From a virus: a stretch of DNA of 34,850 bases. Position 1 is the stretch's first letter. Every line of letters starts with the position of its first letter. Shown piece after piece: positions 1 through 23,196 of the stretch. The stretch lies in IMG/VR virus record IMGVR_UViG_3300034198_004558, positions 1 to 34,850 of that record. One strand, written 5' to 3'. The notes beneath the pieces are model-generated. The model was not told where the DNA came from. It did not search any database and was given only the letters and a program-made list of their open reading frames with translations. The translations under genes and the position numbers were made by a program.

Positions 1-329
1 CAATCGTAGTCACTAGCTACGTCACCTTTACTACATACCCACGCATAACACGGGTCGTTCAATACGTCGCCGTGTTCGTGTAGCACCCACTCTACCGGTT
101 GCCCACAATGGGTAATAGTTCCGTCGTCGTTAAAATCCGCATTCTCTCCGTCGTTATTACATAGCTTGCAATATTCTTGGTTACCCTCACACGTCCGGCA
201 AAATGGGGTACAGTCATACCCGCCCTCGTGTTCTGGGCACTCTATTAGTTCGTGTTCGTGTGTTTTGGTCTGTAAACTTTCCAGAATTAAGCCCAATGTT
301 TTTGAGTCTTTATCACTAATAATTTTCAT
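1..329 (-). CDS. Cys-rich zinc-ribbon-like protein, C-terminus cut by window edge
   Basis: Reading leftward from an ATG at 329-327, 109 codons are open to the window edge, so the protein is partial. It begins MKIISDKDSKTLGLILESLQ and then carries several Cys pairs: C-R-T-C, C-K-L-C, an H-C-G and C-x4-C, in a very acidic background with many His. Such spacing suggests one or two structural zinc ribbons, though no named family is recognised. The start overlaps the stop of the upstream 59-residue gene by one base (TAATG), placing it last of the visible genes in the ArdC operon. The function is unknown. The reading frame is well supported by the coupling and the regular Cys pattern. Confidence 0.7.
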   Translation of the reverse strand, partial: MKIISDKDSKTLGLILESLQTKTHEHELIECPEHEGGYDCTPFCRTCEGNQEYCKLCNNDGENADFNDDGTITHCGQPVEWVLHEHGDVLNDPCYAWVCSKGDVASDYD

Positions 330-508
330 TAGATCGCTCCTTGTTTTCTGGCGCGTTCAATCTGGGCAAGGCTATCTAGTCTGCCTTGCCAATAGTTTCT
401 TTCCGCCGTGTCGTTTAGGCTTATCTCGTTTAGTTTCTCGAATACGTACTCAATTTCAACATTCATAAACTGATTATCGGTATTCCATAATTTTTCTTTA
501 GTGTTCAT
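329..508 (-). CDS. Small hypothetical protein, 59 aa
   Basis: Encodes MNTKEKLWNTDNQFMNVEIE followed by a charged, probably alpha-helical tail ending ERARKQGAI. The start is preceded by an AGGGGCAAGTA ribosome-binding stretch, and lies nine bases after the stop of the 85-residue gene. Its TAA overlaps the ATG of the next gene by one base. This tight packing on both sides is the main evidence that it is translated. There is no signal peptide, membrane segment, Cys or known motif. It could be an accessory or anti-defence peptide, but only its operon position points that way. Confidence 0.65.
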   Translation of the reverse strand: MNTKEKLWNTDNQFMNVEIEYVFEKLNEISLNDTAERNYWQGRLDSLAQIERARKQGAI

Positions 509-517
509 TACTTGCCC

Positions 518-775
518 CTATGCGTAAGACTTTAGCGCGTTGCGGTAAGACTTCCGCGCTTGGGTTAGTGTTTGGTATTGCTCATAGAATACGTTCGCGT
601 TAGACGGGTGCCCTACGTAATCGTAGTTAGTTATCTGCACGTAGTACGGCTCAACTTTCTGGCCTCCACCATAACGTGCCAACTCTATGCCGTATTTTCC
701 ATTCTCTACGCGCTCAACATATCCACAAGCTAACCCGTAAGCGGTTAGTTCGCCTCTAGTATTTTGTATTTCCAT
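518..775 (-). CDS. Conserved-type hypothetical protein, 85 aa
   Basis: The product starts MEIQNTRGELTAYGLACGYV and has a middle strand-rich part (YYVQITNYDYVG) and a C-terminal basic helix (TQARKSYRNALKSYA). The start is fixed by a strong AGGAGG ribosome-binding site eight bases upstream. The AYGLACGYV opening resembles small proteins of unknown function that accompany antirestriction genes on actinobacterial phages and plasmids; that comparison is from memory and not searched. It sits below a 90-base hairpin-rich spacer, so its expression may be set separately from the upstream genes. The function is unknown. Confidence 0.7.
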   Translation of the reverse strand: MEIQNTRGELTAYGLACGYVERVENGKYGIELARYGGGQKVEPYYVQITNYDYVGHPSNANVFYEQYQTLTQARKSYRNALKSYA

Positions 776-803
776 TTCGTAAGCCCTCCTATGGCCTTAA
801 TTC

Positions 804-852
804 CTAGTCTTAGTGACTAGATAGCCAGACACGGAGACTAACCCCGTGCCTG
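804..852 (-). other. Two adjacent hairpins in spacer of the ArdC operon
   Basis: The 89-base spacer between the 39-residue and 85-residue genes holds two stem-loops. One is CTAGTC-TTAGT-GACTAG at 804-820 (six perfect pairs). The other pairs 826-834 with 844-852: nine pairs, with a single position that is A:C on the plus strand but a G:U wobble on the minus strand. The structure is therefore fully paired only in RNA made from the minus strand, the direction of the operon. There is no U-tract, so it is more likely a processing, stability or attenuation element than an intrinsic terminator. Confidence 0.45.
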
Positions 853-864
853 ACTAACCGGTAA

Positions 865-984
865 CTAATTCGTGCCTATCCAAAATATTAACACAATAAC
901 GCCCGACGACATTACCAAGCACGCGGCCGCGATTAAGTTATCTCTCAACCGGTAGGCCTTAGGCGTCCAATTCCATTTAGTCAT
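865..984 (-). CDS. Small single-span membrane protein, 39 aa
   Basis: An ORF encoding MTKWNWTPKAYRLRDNLIAA followed by a continuous hydrophobic stretch (about residues 17-36, containing CLVMSSGVIVLIFWIG) and stopping after T-N. Its ATG overlaps the TGA of the 161-residue gene as ATGA, a classic coupled arrangement, so no separate ribosome-binding site is needed. The basic, aromatic N-terminus before one membrane segment predicts a cytoplasmic N-terminus with the short tail outside. Possible roles are membrane-associated anti-defence peptide, superinfection-exclusion peptide or small regulator; none can be chosen from sequence alone. Confidence 0.65.
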   Translation of the reverse strand: MTKWNWTPKAYRLRDNLIAAACLVMSSGVIVLIFWIGTN

Positions 985-1466
985 ACTAACGCTCCGTCTC
1001 GGTTAAATTCCCAGTACCCTACACCAATTAAGCTCGTGATATTCCGGCGTAATCTTTGGCAATAAGCATAGGCGAAAGTCTGCTCCCATTCCTCCGTCTC
1101 ACATGCTTGGTACTCGTAACAATGGATAGCCCCAAGTACCACGGCCTGCCAATTTTCCATACGTTGCAATGGCGTGTAGTTGTAAGCCTCCGGCTCCGTA
1201 TTCTCTCCGTATCTGGCGTTTACACTTGCGTTATTTTCTGCCACTAGCTCCCCGCCTAGCGCGGATAACTTGGCCGTCCCGTCCGTCCGTCCCATAGGTA
1301 GTCGCGCCGGCGAATAACCGGCGGCGGCCTCCATAAAGGTATCTAGGCCGGCCGTCCTTGGTGTCGTGTCTGTAATTAATTCCGGCATGTAATGGCCGTC
1401 TCCCGTCCAATACCAAGCTGAAACCAATAAATCTATGGTGTCTTTGTTTACATTGAAAGCAGACAT
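981..1466 (-). CDS. Conserved hypothetical protein of antirestriction neighbourhoods, 161 aa
   Basis: The N-terminus (NKDTIDLLVSAWYW) is followed by a conserved-looking core: GGELVAENNASVNARYG, then an aromatic YNYTPLQR, then CYEYQACETEEWEQT, and a C-terminal RRNITSLIGVGYWEF. This order (ENxxSVNxRY, then EYQxCExxxW) matches a family I recall from phage and plasmid accessory regions, often near ArdC-type genes, with no known activity. It is coupled to the 60-residue gene upstream (TAATG) and the 39-residue membrane protein downstream (ATGA). No signal peptide or catalytic motif is evident. The many short ORFs on the other strand here are shadows. Confidence 0.75.
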   Translation of the reverse strand: MSAFNVNKDTIDLLVSAWYWTGDGHYMPELITDTTPRTAGLDTFMEAAAGYSPARLPMGRTDGTAKLSALGGELVAENNASVNARYGENTEPEAYNYTPLQRMENWQAVVLGAIHCYEYQACETEEWEQTFAYAYCQRLRRNITSLIGVGYWEFNRDGALV

Positions 1467-1648
1467 TAGATACCGGCCAATCCGCGTTCGCGGCGTTCTA
1501 AGTTAATCCAATAGGTGTCGCGGCTTGCCTTAAATAAGGCCACGGCCTCGCGCTTGGTGTAGTAGTAATAGCTTTGTGTTACTTGGTAGCCGGCCTTATC
1601 GGTGTCGCTTATGACCCAAGCTCCGGCGTGATTCTTTTCTATTGTCAT
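1466..1648 (-). CDS. Small hypothetical protein, 60 aa
   Basis: Encodes MTIEKNHAGAWVISDTDKAG, then a Tyr-rich YYYYTKREAVALFKASRD segment and a basic end. The start has a strong AAGGAGATATAAGC ribosome-binding stretch. The pattern of aromatic strand followed by T-K-R-E-A-helix resembles short phage/plasmid proteins of unknown function. It is the first gene after an 89-base hairpin spacer that separates it from the ArdC gene, and its TAA overlaps the next ATG. No enzymatic motif is present. Confidence 0.7.
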   Translation of the reverse strand: MTIEKNHAGAWVISDTDKAGYQVTQSYYYYTKREAVALFKASRDTYWINLERRERGLAGI

Positions 1649-1699
1649 TGCTTATATCTCCTTATCTTGTATCTAATCCCGACTAGGAATAGATAGCTA

Positions 1700-1724
1700 C
1701 GGCCTAACCCTAGCAGCTAGGCCG
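1700..1724 (-). other. Hairpin in spacer after the ardC-like gene
   Basis: CGGCCTA at 1700-1706 pairs perfectly with TAGGCCG at 1718-1724 around an 11-base loop, 13 bases beyond the stop of the ArdC-like gene. There is no following U-tract. The surrounding spacer shares words with the spacer at 776-864 (GACTAG, ATAGCYA, CGG in the same order), suggesting a repeated intercistronic element. Confidence 0.4.
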
Positions 1725-1737
1725 CAACTATCCAACA

Positions 1738-2625
1738 CTAAACGGAAACTAGCTCCTTATCCTTGACAGACACGCCGGCCACTATGTCGGCGGCCTTCTG
1801 TGCAGCTTGCGCCGCGCTAACCAATAGCGAACGGTCGTCTTTTAAGGCCTTAAGCCAAGAACCTACATAAGCGGCCGTCTGCTCCGTCTCAATCTGCACG
1901 CCATAAGTCGCGGCCAATATCGCCGCGCTAATCTCGGCTACTAGCTCCTCTTTGGCATAAGTAGCGCACCCAAAGGCCGTGGAATCATCTCTCTCAAAGC
2001 GGCCTAATCTGTCGGCGTGTCCGGTGCTATGGCTTAGCTCATGCGCCAATGTCTCAAAGTATCCGGCGGCCGTGTCGAATTGGTCACGCGCCGGCAAGGT
2101 AATCGTGTCTAGTGCCGGTGAATAATAAGCACGGTCGCCGCGTACATTGGTAACACTTGGCCGGCCTTGGTAGGCCTCCAAGATAGCTATTTCAGCCCCA
2201 AGTATGTCTACCGGCTCCCGTTCCTCAATCTTTGGAATCTCAATACCGCCTATCTGCTCCAAGTTAAATAAAGAATATGTACGCATTAGCGAAATTTTCT
2301 TTGGGTCATTATCTGGGTTAACCTTGCAGGCCACGTCCAGAATCTTCCAAAATACAACTGGCGCGGCCTTTTCTCCCTTGCGTACCTGCCCGCCTAGCTC
2401 CTCAGCTTGCTTATAGGTAAGCCATAGGTCGGAGCTATAACCCTTGGCAGCTCCTATGCACCAAAGATTAAGAATGTTAATACCACGGTAGGCCTTACCG
2501 GTGGAATAGTTGGCCGGTAGCCCGCCTCCGGTAGTTGTCCAAGGCTTGCGCCATGGCACTACACCGGCCTCTAGTGCCTCGATTATTGCGTTAGTAACCT
2601 TTTCAGTCGTCTCGTTAGTTGTCAT
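1738..2625 (-). CDS. ardC: ArdC-like antirestriction protein (ssDNA-binding domain plus zincin metallopeptidase)
   Basis: A 295-residue protein with the ArdC layout. Residues 1-130 form the N-terminal ArdC/DUF1738 domain (VPWRKPW at 24-30, NYSTGKAYRGINILNLW at 39-55, and a GGQVRKGEKAAPVVFWK strand pair). A zincin-like domain follows with HELSH at 195-199, the HExxH zinc site, and a downstream glutamate region (KEELVAEISA, 225-234) that should supply the third ligand. ArdC proteins bind single-stranded DNA and protect entering DNA from type I and some type II restriction. All key residues are present. The ATG overlaps the stop of the upstream 68-residue gene (TAATG). This gene gives the minus-strand operon its most likely theme, evasion of host defence. 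Confidence 0.9.
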   Translation of the reverse strand: MTTNETTEKVTNAIIEALEAGVVPWRKPWTTTGGGLPANYSTGKAYRGINILNLWCIGAAKGYSSDLWLTYKQAEELGGQVRKGEKAAPVVFWKILDVACKVNPDNDPKKISLMRTYSLFNLEQIGGIEIPKIEEREPVDILGAEIAILEAYQGRPSVTNVRGDRAYYSPALDTITLPARDQFDTAAGYFETLAHELSHSTGHADRLGRFERDDSTAFGCATYAKEELVAEISAAILAATYGVQIETEQTAAYVGSWLKALKDDRSLLVSAAQAAQKAADIVAGVSVKDKELVSV

Positions 2626-2831
2626 TATTTCACGGCCTTAGGCGTGTGCTTAAGCTCCCGCAATAACGTGGCCTTAGCAATTTCAAATTCCTTGGGATCC
2701 ATAAAGAAGGTAACGCCGGCTACGCGTAGCGTGTACCGCTTGCCATTCTCCCAAGATTGAACGGCTACGCCGTCGGTGTCGAATTGATCTATATGAACAC
2801 TTGCCATGAATGTAGTCTTAGTAGCTTGCAT
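2625..2831 (-). CDS. Small hypothetical protein, first gene of ArdC operon, 68 aa
   Basis: Encodes MQATKTTFMASVHIDQFDTD and then a short beta-rich core (GKRYTLRVAGVTFFMDP) with a helical basic tail. The start at 2831 is preferred over Met9 because an AGGG sits at ribosome-binding distance upstream and none precedes Met9. It leads the minus-strand operon and is coupled to the ArdC-like gene, so it may be an early-expressed partner or a small regulator. No known motif is recognised. Confidence 0.7.
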   Translation of the reverse strand: MQATKTTFMASVHIDQFDTDGVAVQSWENGKRYTLRVAGVTFFMDPKEFEIAKATLLRELKHTPKAVK

Positions 2832-2846
2832 AACTAGCCCTATCTT

Positions 2847-2901
2847 TAACGCCGCCGGCCACTATCCGGTAGCTATTAGTTAGATACTAACGCCGCCGGC
2901 C
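2847..2901. repeat. 14-bp direct repeat pair in leader of ArdC operon
   Basis: TAACGCCGCCGGCC occurs at 2847-2860 and again exactly at 2888-2901, 41 bases apart, just upstream of the first minus-strand gene. The 27 bases between hold CTATCCGGTAGCTATTAG. The GCCGGC core of each copy is itself palindromic. This looks like a pair of regulator binding sites or leader-RNA stems. Confidence 0.55.
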
Positions 2902-2918
2902 TAATCCTCCAGACCAAT

Positions 2919-2951
2919 TTAGGTAAACATTAGGTAAAGAATTAGTAAAGA
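2919..2951. repeat. Three tandem 11-bp repeats (candidate operator or iteron)
   Basis: Three contiguous units: TTAGGTAAACA (2919-2929), TTAGGTAAAGA (2930-2940) and ATTAGTAAAGA (2941-2951). The 11-bp period puts every copy on the same face of the helix. On the minus strand a TTGAAA (2971-2966) lies just outside, with the repeats covering the place of a -10 box. The array could therefore be an operator for the ArdC operon. An iteron-type origin is an alternative. Confidence 0.55.
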
Positions 2952-3035
2952 TTATTTCGTCATAATTTCAAGCTATCTGCCCCTTGCTTGACTGTCTCCG
3001 ACTACACAAACAAACACTATGTAACACAGCAAGAA

Positions 3036-18519: not shown

Positions 18520-18520
<1 letters not shown>
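17639..18520 (+). CDS. Collagen-like fibre protein, 293 aa
   Basis: Two collagen-like blocks of G-P-T/G-X-T triplets (about residues 38-60 and 113-165) alternate with a globular module, [20 protein letters not shown], found twice here and once in the next gene. The C-terminal 110 residues are Thr-rich beta strands ([20 protein letters not shown]) likely to form a trimeric head. No lysine hydroxylation would be expected; stability would come from Thr-rich triplets. It probably forms a trimeric fibre or capsid bristle. Confidence 0.85.
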
Positions 18521-19818
<1,298 letters not shown>

Positions 19819-22131: not shown

Positions 22132-23196
22132 ATGAAGATTGCAGTTTACGCCATTGCCCTTAACGAGGCCAAACATGCCGAGCGCTGGGCCAAGGCTACA
22201 GCGGGTGCTGATATACGAATAGTAGCAGATACAGGCTCAACAGACAACACGATGGCTTTGCTTGCAAAGCATGGTATCCAGGCACACAAAATTAGTGTAG
22301 TCCCATTCAGGTTTGATGATGCTCGCAATGCAGCTTTGGCTTTAGTTCCAGCAGATGTAGACATCTGTGTAAGCCTAGACATGGATGAAATACCAGATCC
22401 AGATTTCTTTGACAAACTCAGGGAACACTGGCAACCAAATACCGACAGAGCTTGGGTCATGTGGGATACTGGAACCATCTGGGCTAACAACAATAGGGTT
22501 CATGCTAGGCATGGGTTCCGTTGGATTAAGCCATGCCATGAAGTTCCTGTTCTTTCCAAGAAACGACCAGAGAACGACATAGTTGTTGAGACCCTGGTTA
22601 AACACGCTCCAGACGATTCTAAGCCACGTACACAGTACCTTGGTATGCTAGAGTGGGCGGTAGAAGAAGACCCCTCAGATTCACGCATGTTGGCTTACTT
22701 GGCACGTGAGTATTACTTTCATTCAAGGTGGGAAGATGTCATCAGAACAGCAGGAACCCTCCGAGGATTGGATGCTGGTTGGAATGTTGAGCGTGCTGCT
22801 ACTTGGCGCAATGCTGGTTTTAGTTTTCAGCAATTAGGCAACAATCAAGAAGCCGAGCAATGGTATCAATTTGGTACTGAGACTGCCCCTGAACAAATGG
22901 AAACTTGGTTCTCTTATTCCCAGTTTATGTACACACGGGAACGCTGGGAAGAGTGTTTAGCTGCCACAGATAAAGGTCTAGCCCTAAAGCCCGACACACA
23001 CTATCTTGCCGATGAGTCAACTACTTGGCGGTTGCACGATTTAAAGTCTATTGCTTGCTGGAACCTTGGTAAAAAGGGTTCGGCTAAAAAGCATTCGCGC
23101 ATTGCTTTGGAACTTAATCCTGATGAGCAACGCCTTAAAGATAACTACGCCTTCATGGTGAGTTCTGTTGTAAAGGAATACAAAGATGGCCTGTAG
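22132..23196 (+). CDS. Family 2-type glycosyltransferase with C-terminal TPR-like helices
   Basis: A 354-residue protein. Residues 1-110 give the GT-A fold: AVYAIALNEAKHAERW, the nucleotide-binding DTGSTDNT (33-40) and DMDE (83-86), the metal-binding DxD. The C-terminal half has TPR-like helical pairs (ARNAGFSFQQLGNNQEAEQW style, residues about 185-340). It would transfer a sugar from a nucleotide donor. Possible acceptors are the neighbouring fibre proteins or host surface. It begins with an AGGG-type ribosome-binding site and is bracketed by two versions of the MACRTGC start, which suggests it was inserted as a unit. Confidence 0.88.
   Translation: MKIAVYAIALNEAKHAERWAKATAGADIRIVADTGSTDNTMALLAKHGIQAHKISVVPFRFDDARNAALALVPADVDICVSLDMDEIPDPDFFDKLREHWQPNTDRAWVMWDTGTIWANNNRVHARHGFRWIKPCHEVPVLSKKRPENDIVVETLVKHAPDDSKPRTQYLGMLEWAVEEDPSDSRMLAYLAREYYFHSRWEDVIRTAGTLRGLDAGWNVERAATWRNAGFSFQQLGNNQEAEQWYQFGTETAPEQMETWFSYSQFMYTRERWEECLAATDKGLALKPDTHYLADESTTWRLHDLKSIACWNLGKKGSAKKHSRIALELNPDEQRLKDNYAFMVSSVVKEYKDGL

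What the first reader, a model, noticed from the sequence alone, without database searches (positions are those of the whole stretch)
1..2831. ArdC-led operon of unknown small genes: candidate anti-defence island
Eight coupled minus-strand genes, one a clear ArdC-type antirestriction zincin and the others (68, 60, 161, 39, 85, 59 residues and a zinc-ribbon-like protein) unassigned. Genes that sit with a known antirestriction gene under one control are good candidates for new inhibitors of host defence. The coupling is seen; the function is inferred.
Basis: partly seen in the sequence, partly recalled or inferred. Interest (0 to 1): 0.65.

Follow-up and report, generated by a model that had tools for sequence, protein, structure and literature searches.

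The report
Phage antirestriction gene in modular operon
A freshwater phage carries a genuine antirestriction gene (ArdC) near the front of a row of small exchangeable genes; most of its neighbours are not tied to anti-defence, but the row is stitched together by repeated RNA hairpins and start signals whose exact complement sits in the terminator loops of related phages, hinting at an unrecognised RNA control circuit.

Summary
The eight minus-strand genes are real and ArdC is a bona fide family member (ArdcN + zincin domains, intact active site, 1.7e-61 to R388 ArdC). They are not one coupled unit: two of seven junctions are 89-nt gaps, a 68-aa gene (not ArdC) comes first, and the last gene is cut by the record end. 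Relatives show this is the head of a leftward accessory operon, divergent from the terminase, in freshwater actinophage-like viruses; the closest (96% terminase) has the operon without ArdC. Guilt by association is uneven: the 161-aa family (20/80 viral loci) and 60-aa family (6/69) recur near ArdC-type genes; the 39-, 85-aa and zinc-ribbon genes occur without them. So "anti-defence island" is only partly supported. New: both gaps hold a strongly covarying tandem-hairpin leader (absent from Rfam) followed by a start-associated RBS (GATAGG[A/G]). In eight relatives the operon ends, 4-5 nt after its last stop, in two hairpins whose loops exactly complement that RBS; in four Cluster K1 mycobacteriophages the unexplained reversed SAS also lies in a hairpin loop. 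I propose RNA-level control of exchangeable gene blocks; function is inferred.

The parts
2625..2831 (-). g8, 68-aa first gene of the operon; no homologue found
   Evidence: start-associated RBS GATAGGG at 2838-2844; stop overlaps ArdC start by 1 nt
1738..2625 (-). ArdC-type antirestriction protein, 295 aa, ArdcN (ssDNA-binding) plus MPTase-PolyVal zincin domain; HELSH and glutamate-helix EELVAEIS intact
   Evidence: PF08401 1.3e-36, PF18818 3.2e-35; PHROG 7245 2.2e-79; PDB 6i89/6sna R388 ArdC 1.7e-61
1649..1737 (-). 89-nt gap with tandem-hairpin leader (hairpins 1673-1730) and RBS GATAAGGAG before g6
   Evidence: R1 match 48.6 bits, E 1.3e-9, a seed sequence; fold and covariation
1466..1648 (-). 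g6, 60-aa GAWVISD...YYYYTKREA protein
   Evidence: 69 related viral loci; 6 with ArdC-type gene 222-454 nt upstream
981..1466 (-). g5, 161-aa helical protein, MSAF.V...CYEYQACE family, widespread in phages, plasmids and genomes
   Evidence: model pLDDT 79.8; no convincing fold match
865..984 (-). g4, 39-aa hydrophobic protein, homologues in relatives without ArdC
776..864 (-). 89-nt gap with tandem-hairpin leader (hairpins 804-856) and RBS ATAGGAGGG before g3
   Evidence: R1 match 64.5 bits, E 3.1e-13, a seed sequence
518..775 (-). g3, 85-aa LTAYGLACGYV protein; homologue in L098 (43%)
329..508 (-). g2, 59-aa protein; homologue in L134, whose operon is led by an ArdcN-only gene
3..329 (-). g1, zinc-ribbon-like protein (YDCTPFC..C...), at least 109 aa, cut by the record end
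2838..2844 (-). start-associated sequence GATAGGG of the first gene
   Evidence: predicted pairing with anti-SAS loop -10.9 kcal/mol versus -5.8 with the 16S anti-SD
2870..2988 (-). conserved block upstream of the first gene (82% identical in L085), likely promoter region
   Evidence: no sigma-70 consensus above chance

Best explanation
The region is the head of a leftward, non-structural accessory operon of a freshwater actinophage-like virus. It is made of exchangeable blocks of translationally coupled small genes: {68 aa, ArdC}, {60, 161, 39 aa}, {85, 59, zinc ribbon ...}. Each block is introduced by a start-associated RBS (GATAGG[A/G] or a variant), and the later blocks also by an intercistronic tandem hairpin. 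ArdC most likely protects incoming phage DNA from host restriction by binding DNA through its N-terminal domain. The small genes are a mixed accessory set; the 161-aa protein is the best candidate for a functional partner of ArdC-type genes. In relatives the same transcript ends in two hairpins whose loops are the exact complement of the start-associated RBS, so I propose that the loops pair with the RBSs of the regulon and tune its translation. Shown: gene content, domains, covarying hairpins, complementarity, positions. Inferred: antirestriction in this phage, RNA pairing, partner role of the 161-aa protein, and that this phage's own unsequenced operon end carries the loops.
For: ArdC domains and catalytic motifs; in R388 ArdC the protease activity is dispensable and the N-domain binds ssDNA (PMC7213743). 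L085 with 96% identical terminase has the same operon with other blocks and no ArdC. Relatives carry WhiB in 13 of 17 records and DnaN-like genes. Leader hairpins: inner stems pair 6.93 of 7 versus 4.95 for arms swapped between copies, 0 of 20000 permutations reach it; covariation score 0.465 versus 0.210 shuffled and at most 0.075 slid; 12 held-out copies found by the model in L284, L286, L287, L297, L300 (2), L317, L098 and L395 (4); 23 copies examined lie 21-42 nt before a start codon. Anti-SAS twin hairpins 4-5 nt after the last gene's stop in 8 of 8 relatives examined (found by the motif), with 2-6 SAS starts before them on the same strand and none opposite or after; YCCTATC is the commonest terminator loop word after the UUCG-type loop words among 296 terminator-like hairpins. 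K1 mycobacteriophages Anaya, Adephagia, Angelica and CrimD present their single reversed SAS in a hairpin loop.
Against: No expression or restriction data exist for this phage. The operon's 3' end is outside the record, so anti-SAS loops are not shown in this phage. A count of twin hairpins alone does not beat shuffled motifs (6 versus mean 1.8, maximum 7). The eight relatives form only about three divergent lineages. The loops also resemble the 16S anti-Shine-Dalgarno, so complementarity to a purine-rich RBS may be partly generic. Subcluster K3 phage Pixie has 17 SAS core matches but no exact anti-SAS in the region read. The two window leaders were among the 14 model seeds, and the outer stem bases were fixed by the pattern used to collect the seeds.
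Confidence: 0.66

Rival explanations
1. Anti-defence island: most or all of the small genes inhibit host defences alongside ArdC.
For: ArdC is genuine; the 161-aa and 60-aa families recur near ArdC-type genes, mostly just downstream on the same strand; the 161-aa family also sits in plasmid regions with ArdR, cytosine methyltransferase, UmuDC-like and toxin-antitoxin genes.
Against: 39-aa, 85-aa and zinc-ribbon genes occur in relatives without ArdC; 60 of 80 161-aa loci and 63 of 69 60-aa loci show no ArdC-type gene in the DNA held; no other anti-defence family is recognised; relatives' operons carry WhiB and DnaN-like genes.
Confidence: 0.2
2. The ArdC-type gene serves phage DNA metabolism (ssDNA binding during replication or packaging) rather than antirestriction.
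For: Relatives often keep only the ssDNA-binding N-domain; their operons also encode DnaN-like proteins; several phage ArdC homologues are annotated as DNA primase.
Against: Both domains and the zincin motif are intact here; sporadic presence (2 of 50 relatives) fits an accessory defence-evasion gene better than a replication gene; R388 ArdC antirestriction does not need the protease (PMC7213743).
Confidence: 0.2
3. Leader hairpins are transcription attenuators, RNase processing sites or protein-binding sites, and the anti-SAS loops are only terminators shaped by another constraint, with no RNA-RNA pairing.
For: The hairpins follow stop codons and are stable (-24 to -33 kcal/mol); the terminal hairpin is a good intrinsic terminator; C-rich loops can be generic.
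Against: Leaders lack terminator T-runs and lie 21-42 nt before starts; loop words stay constant while stems change in three lineages and recur in unrelated K1 phages; SAS-bearing genes pair with the loops at about -8 to -13 kcal/mol and unmarked coupled genes at about -2 to -7.
Confidence: 0.35
4. The small ORFs are chance ORFs and not genes.
For: Short lengths; no database family.
Against: Six of the seven small genes have homologues in other contigs; tight overlaps and RBSs.
Confidence: 0.02

Closest known systems
ArdC of plasmids R388 and pSa (PDB 6i89, 6sna)
   Same: Two-domain architecture, HExxH and glutamate-helix motifs, alignment over residues 7-283
   Different: Encoded by a phage, near the head of a leftward accessory operon; activity untested. 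Many relatives keep only the N-domain
Polyvalent-protein ArdC-N / MPTase modules (PMC5512222)
   Same: Same two domains fused in one protein encoded by a mobile element
   Different: Minimal two-domain form with no further effector domain
Anti-defence islands of plasmid leading regions (PMC11541004)
   Same: An antirestriction gene clustered with uncharacterised small genes; the 161-aa family also occurs in plasmid regions with ArdR, methyltransferase and toxin-antitoxin genes
   Different: Phage operon with a single recognised antirestriction gene; the neighbours in relatives are WhiB and DnaN-like genes
[quoted passage not shown]
   Same: GATAGGA core at the RBS of a subset of small non-structural genes; inverted repeats upstream; K1 phages also hold one reversed SAS, here shown in a hairpin loop
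   Different: The 13-bp GGGATAGGAGCCC consensus is not kept; ESAS repeats are near-constant sequences that contain a promoter and show little pairing support, whereas the leaders here have variable, covarying stems and the model does not match Anaya
Freshwater 'Ca. Nanopelagicales' phages with WhiB, glycosyltransferase and, in one, an ArdA homologue (PMC10202952)
   Same: Actinophage-type gene content with a sporadic antirestriction gene; the window has a glycosyltransferase
   Different: Here ArdC, not ArdA; direct relationship to those isolates was not tested

Membership tests
ArdC antirestriction family | ArdcN domain (PF08401) above the curated cut-off | tested here: met
   126 bits versus 22.6
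ArdC antirestriction family | MPTase-PolyVal zincin domain with HExxH and glutamate helix | tested here: met
   PF18818 121 bits versus 27.5; HELSH and EELVAEIS align with R388 ArdC
ArdC antirestriction family | Relief of host restriction | not testable with these tools
   needs an experiment
Anti-defence island | More than one recognised anti-defence gene in the cluster | tested here: not met
   only ArdC recognised by Pfam, PHROGs and NCBIfam; the operon's 3' part is outside the record
Anti-defence island | Neighbour families recur with antirestriction genes elsewhere | tested here: inconclusive
   161-aa and 60-aa families yes, in a minority of loci; 39-aa, 85-aa and zinc-ribbon no; 59-aa one case with ArdcN
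Anti-defence island | Early expression after DNA entry | not testable with these tools
   no expression data
Cluster K SAS | 13-bp GGGATAGGAGCCC with at most two deviations | tested here: not met
   only the core GATAGG[A/G] is shared in the sites read
Cluster K SAS | Location a few nt upstream of start codons of non-structural genes, one orientation | tested here: met
Cluster K ESAS | Conserved-sequence 17-bp inverted repeats carrying a SigA-like promoter | tested here: not met
   R1 finds no match in Anaya; stems vary with compensation; promoter scan shows no site in the two leaders
Any Rfam RNA family | Match at the gathering score | tested here: not met
   none in window, L188, L195, L085, L196, L199; best sub-threshold match in the region E 0.85 to a microRNA model

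The most novel reading that the evidence does not exclude
Actinobacteriophages use an RNA circuit in which a start-associated sequence marks the RBSs of exchangeable accessory genes (including, here, the block that holds antirestriction ArdC) and hairpin loops with the exact complement, made at the end of the same transcript or elsewhere in the genome, pair with them to set expression. This would give the unexplained SAS repeats of Cluster K mycobacteriophages a function, and the 161-aa protein would be a new ArdC partner.
Probability: 0.3. Interest if true: 0.75.

Novelty: new variant of a known kind. Interest (0 to 1): 0.48.

Why it matters
If the SAS/anti-SAS pairing is real, it explains repeats that have been described without a function since 2011 and gives a simple test in M. 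smegmatis phages that can be engineered. It would also explain how phages swap small accessory genes, antirestriction genes among them, while keeping them under shared control.

Tried and rejected
Pfam, PHROGs and NCBIfam for the small genes: nothing. Megablast of the phage against 50,697 phage records: no match. Structure of the 161-aa protein: all-helical, pLDDT 79.8, best Foldseek E 0.63 and VIA-align Z 5.8 or less, so no fold assigned; its PDB sequence search was empty. Viral scan with the 85-aa protein failed because the peptide pattern was too degenerate (600 stretches, one weak relative); phage-database hits for it are weak (E 0.1 or more). Sigma-70 promoter scan at or below chance. First ArdC count with a full-length profile missed N-domain-only genes and gave 0 for the 60-aa family outside the window; corrected with an N-domain profile. 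Random-placement test in bacterial genomes was not significant (3 of 27 loci). Twin-hairpin count against shuffled motifs was not significant on its own, so I rely on position, loop constancy and the terminator-loop ranking. Idea that the leaders are ESAS: rejected.
Full report
WHAT IS THERE. The window is a 34,850-base linear virus record. ORF calling finds all eight minus-strand genes with the sizes given. Junctions: 68 aa/ArdC overlap 1 nt; ArdC/60 aa gap 89 nt; 60/161 overlap 1 nt; 161/39 overlap 4 nt; 39/85 gap 89 nt; 85/59 gap 9 nt; 59/zinc ribbon overlap 1 nt. So there are three coupled blocks, not one coupled octet; ArdC is second; the zinc-ribbon gene is cut by the record end. On the other side lies a divergent terminase (starts 3518, +) followed by a portal gene.

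ARDC. The 295-aa product has ArdcN and MPTase-PolyVal well above cut-off, matches the PHROG antirestriction family at 2.2e-79 and the solved R388 ArdC at 1.7e-61 over residues 7-283, with HELSH and the glutamate helix preserved. For R388 ArdC the N-domain binds ssDNA and protease activity is not required for antirestriction (PMC7213743). By homology, antirestriction is likely; it is not shown here.

RELATIVES OF THE PHAGE. The terminase is about 45% identical to Streptomyces phages and up to 96% identical to IMG/VR contigs. The closest, L085, is 89% identical in DNA across the terminase side and shares the 119-bp block before the first leftward gene, the 39-aa gene and part of the zinc-ribbon gene, but has no ArdC, 161-, 60- or 68-aa (g8) gene; in their place are unrelated 68- and 73-aa genes, a 191-aa DnaN-like gene and a 61-aa gene. 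Other relatives have WhiB (13 of 17 records) and DnaN-like genes in the same leftward arm, which runs for several kb to a conserved gene of about 100 aa. WhiB is an actinophage indicator (PMC10202952). The window itself has no WhiB, as expected if the rest of the arm is missing.

IS IT AN ANTI-DEFENCE ISLAND? The 161-aa family is broad: 105 viral stretches, 74 plasmid records, 27 genome loci. An ArdC-type gene lies in 20 of 80 viral loci (9 of 41 clusters at 70% identity, window included), always on the same strand, 17 of 20 upstream, 4-3430 nt away; random placement never gave distances as short (0 of 5000). In several freshwater phages an ArdcN-only protein of about 120-135 aa heads the operon and the 161-aa homologue follows (L218, L216, L225, L235). 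The 60-aa family has ArdC-type genes in 6 of 69 loci, all 222-454 nt upstream, all in one sequence cluster. In genomes it is 3 of 27, in the seven plasmid regions read 0 of 7, though the two Pseudomonas plasmids read carry a cytosine methyltransferase, UmuDC-like and toxin-antitoxin genes near it, one of them also ArdR. Against: 39-, 85-aa and zinc-ribbon homologues occur in relatives with no ArdC; 80 loci of the closest ArdC relatives contain none of the small genes. Missing ArdC in short contigs is not proof of absence. Verdict: partly supported, for one or two of seven genes.

THE GAPS ARE STRUCTURED. Both 89-nt gaps contain a hairpin of 13 or more pairs followed by a small second hairpin, then an RBS. 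Fourteen copies collected from the window and relatives by a pattern that fixed only the outer bases were compared. The seven inner pairs, not fixed by the pattern, pair in 6.93 of 7 cases; swapping arms between copies gives 4.95, and no permutation of 20,000 reaches the observed sum. A covariance model finds 12 held-out copies in L284, L286, L287, L297, L300 (2), L317, L098 and L395 (4). On 22 copies, 10 of 18 pairs have changes on both sides, the covariation score is 0.465 against 0.210 shuffled and at most 0.075 slid. The 23 copies examined follow a stop codon closely as a rule and precede a start by 21-42 nt, usually with GATAGG[A/G] between. Genes behind the leader are of many families (60-aa, DnaN-like, zinc-binding), so the leader tags blocks rather than one gene. 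Rfam has no match. A stricter whole-collection pattern finds nine contigs.

START-ASSOCIATED SEQUENCES AND THEIR COMPLEMENT. The GATAGG[A/G] site recalls the SAS of Cluster K mycobacteriophages (GGGATAGGAGCCC, PMC3203893), whose role is stated to be unknown (PMC11373665). The ESAS of those phages contain promoters and near-constant repeats and are not the same element. In eight relatives the leftward operon ends, 4-5 nt after the last stop, with two hairpins whose loops read YCCTATC(C), the exact complement of GATAGG[A/G]; the second is an intrinsic terminator. The stems differ between three lineages while the loop word stays. Among 296 terminator-like hairpins in these contigs YCCTATC and its one-base shifts are the commonest loop words after the UUCG-type loop words. 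A plain twin-hairpin count does not beat shuffled motifs, and I state this as a limit. SAS starts lie before the hairpins on the same strand (2-6 per operon) and none after or opposite. In K1 phages Anaya, Adephagia, Angelica and CrimD, the single reversed SAS noted in 2011 as not obviously tied to a gene start is the apical loop (CCTCCTATCC) of a long hairpin on the SAS-gene strand; these four are close relatives, so they count as one case. Pixie (K3) has none in the region read. In the window, genes that open a block or bear a SAS-like RBS (g8, g6, g3, g2) are predicted to pair with the loops at about -8 to -13 kcal/mol at best, coupled genes at about -2 to -7.

MECHANISM. Most likely: a divergent promoter region drives a leftward transcript; each block is translated from a SAS-type RBS, with hairpins insulating it from the block before; the transcript end carries loops that can pair with these RBSs and so modulate or coordinate translation. 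ArdC is one exchangeable passenger. Shown: anatomy, covariation, complementarity, syntenic exchange. Inferred: promoter, pairing, direction of effect, antirestriction in this host. The relevant 3' end is not in this record.

SCORE. As an anti-defence island the finding is ordinary to moderate. The RNA elements raise it, because they make an open question about SAS directly testable.

Noticed in passing
L188:5095-5131, L191, L195, L196, L199, L284, L297, L317 (operon 3' ends): Twin hairpins with loops exactly complementary to the start-associated RBS, 4-5 nt after the last leftward gene; not in the window because the record ends first.
   Followed up: yes
L396-L399 (phages Anaya near 59,873, Adephagia 58,685, Angelica 58,637, CrimD 58,838): The single reversed SAS of K1 mycobacteriophages sits in the apical loop of a long stable hairpin on the SAS-gene strand.
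   Followed up: partly
L218, L216, L225, L235, L299, L301: ArdC N-domain-only proteins (about 120-135 aa) head the leftward operon in several freshwater phages, suggesting that the protease domain is dispensable.
   Followed up: partly
L354, L386: The 161-aa family also lies in Pseudomonas plasmid regions with a cytosine methyltransferase, UmuDC-like and toxin-antitoxin genes (L386 also ArdR).
   Followed up: partly
L085, L094, L098, L101, L300, L395: DnaN-like sliding-clamp proteins of about 190-200 aa (shorter than a full clamp) in the leftward arm; several directly follow the tandem-hairpin leader. Identity rests on Pfam for L098, weak Pfam hits for L085 and L101, and sequence resemblance for the rest.
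   Followed up: partly
window 22132-23196 (+): Protein with a glycosyltransferase family 2 domain and tetratricopeptide repeats among the rightward genes.
   Followed up: no
window 18520-19818 (+): Collagen-like tail fibre protein.
   Followed up: no
window 2888-2901 and 2847-2860 (-): GGCCGGCGGCGTTA repeated twice just upstream of the first gene of the operon; purpose unknown.
   Followed up: no
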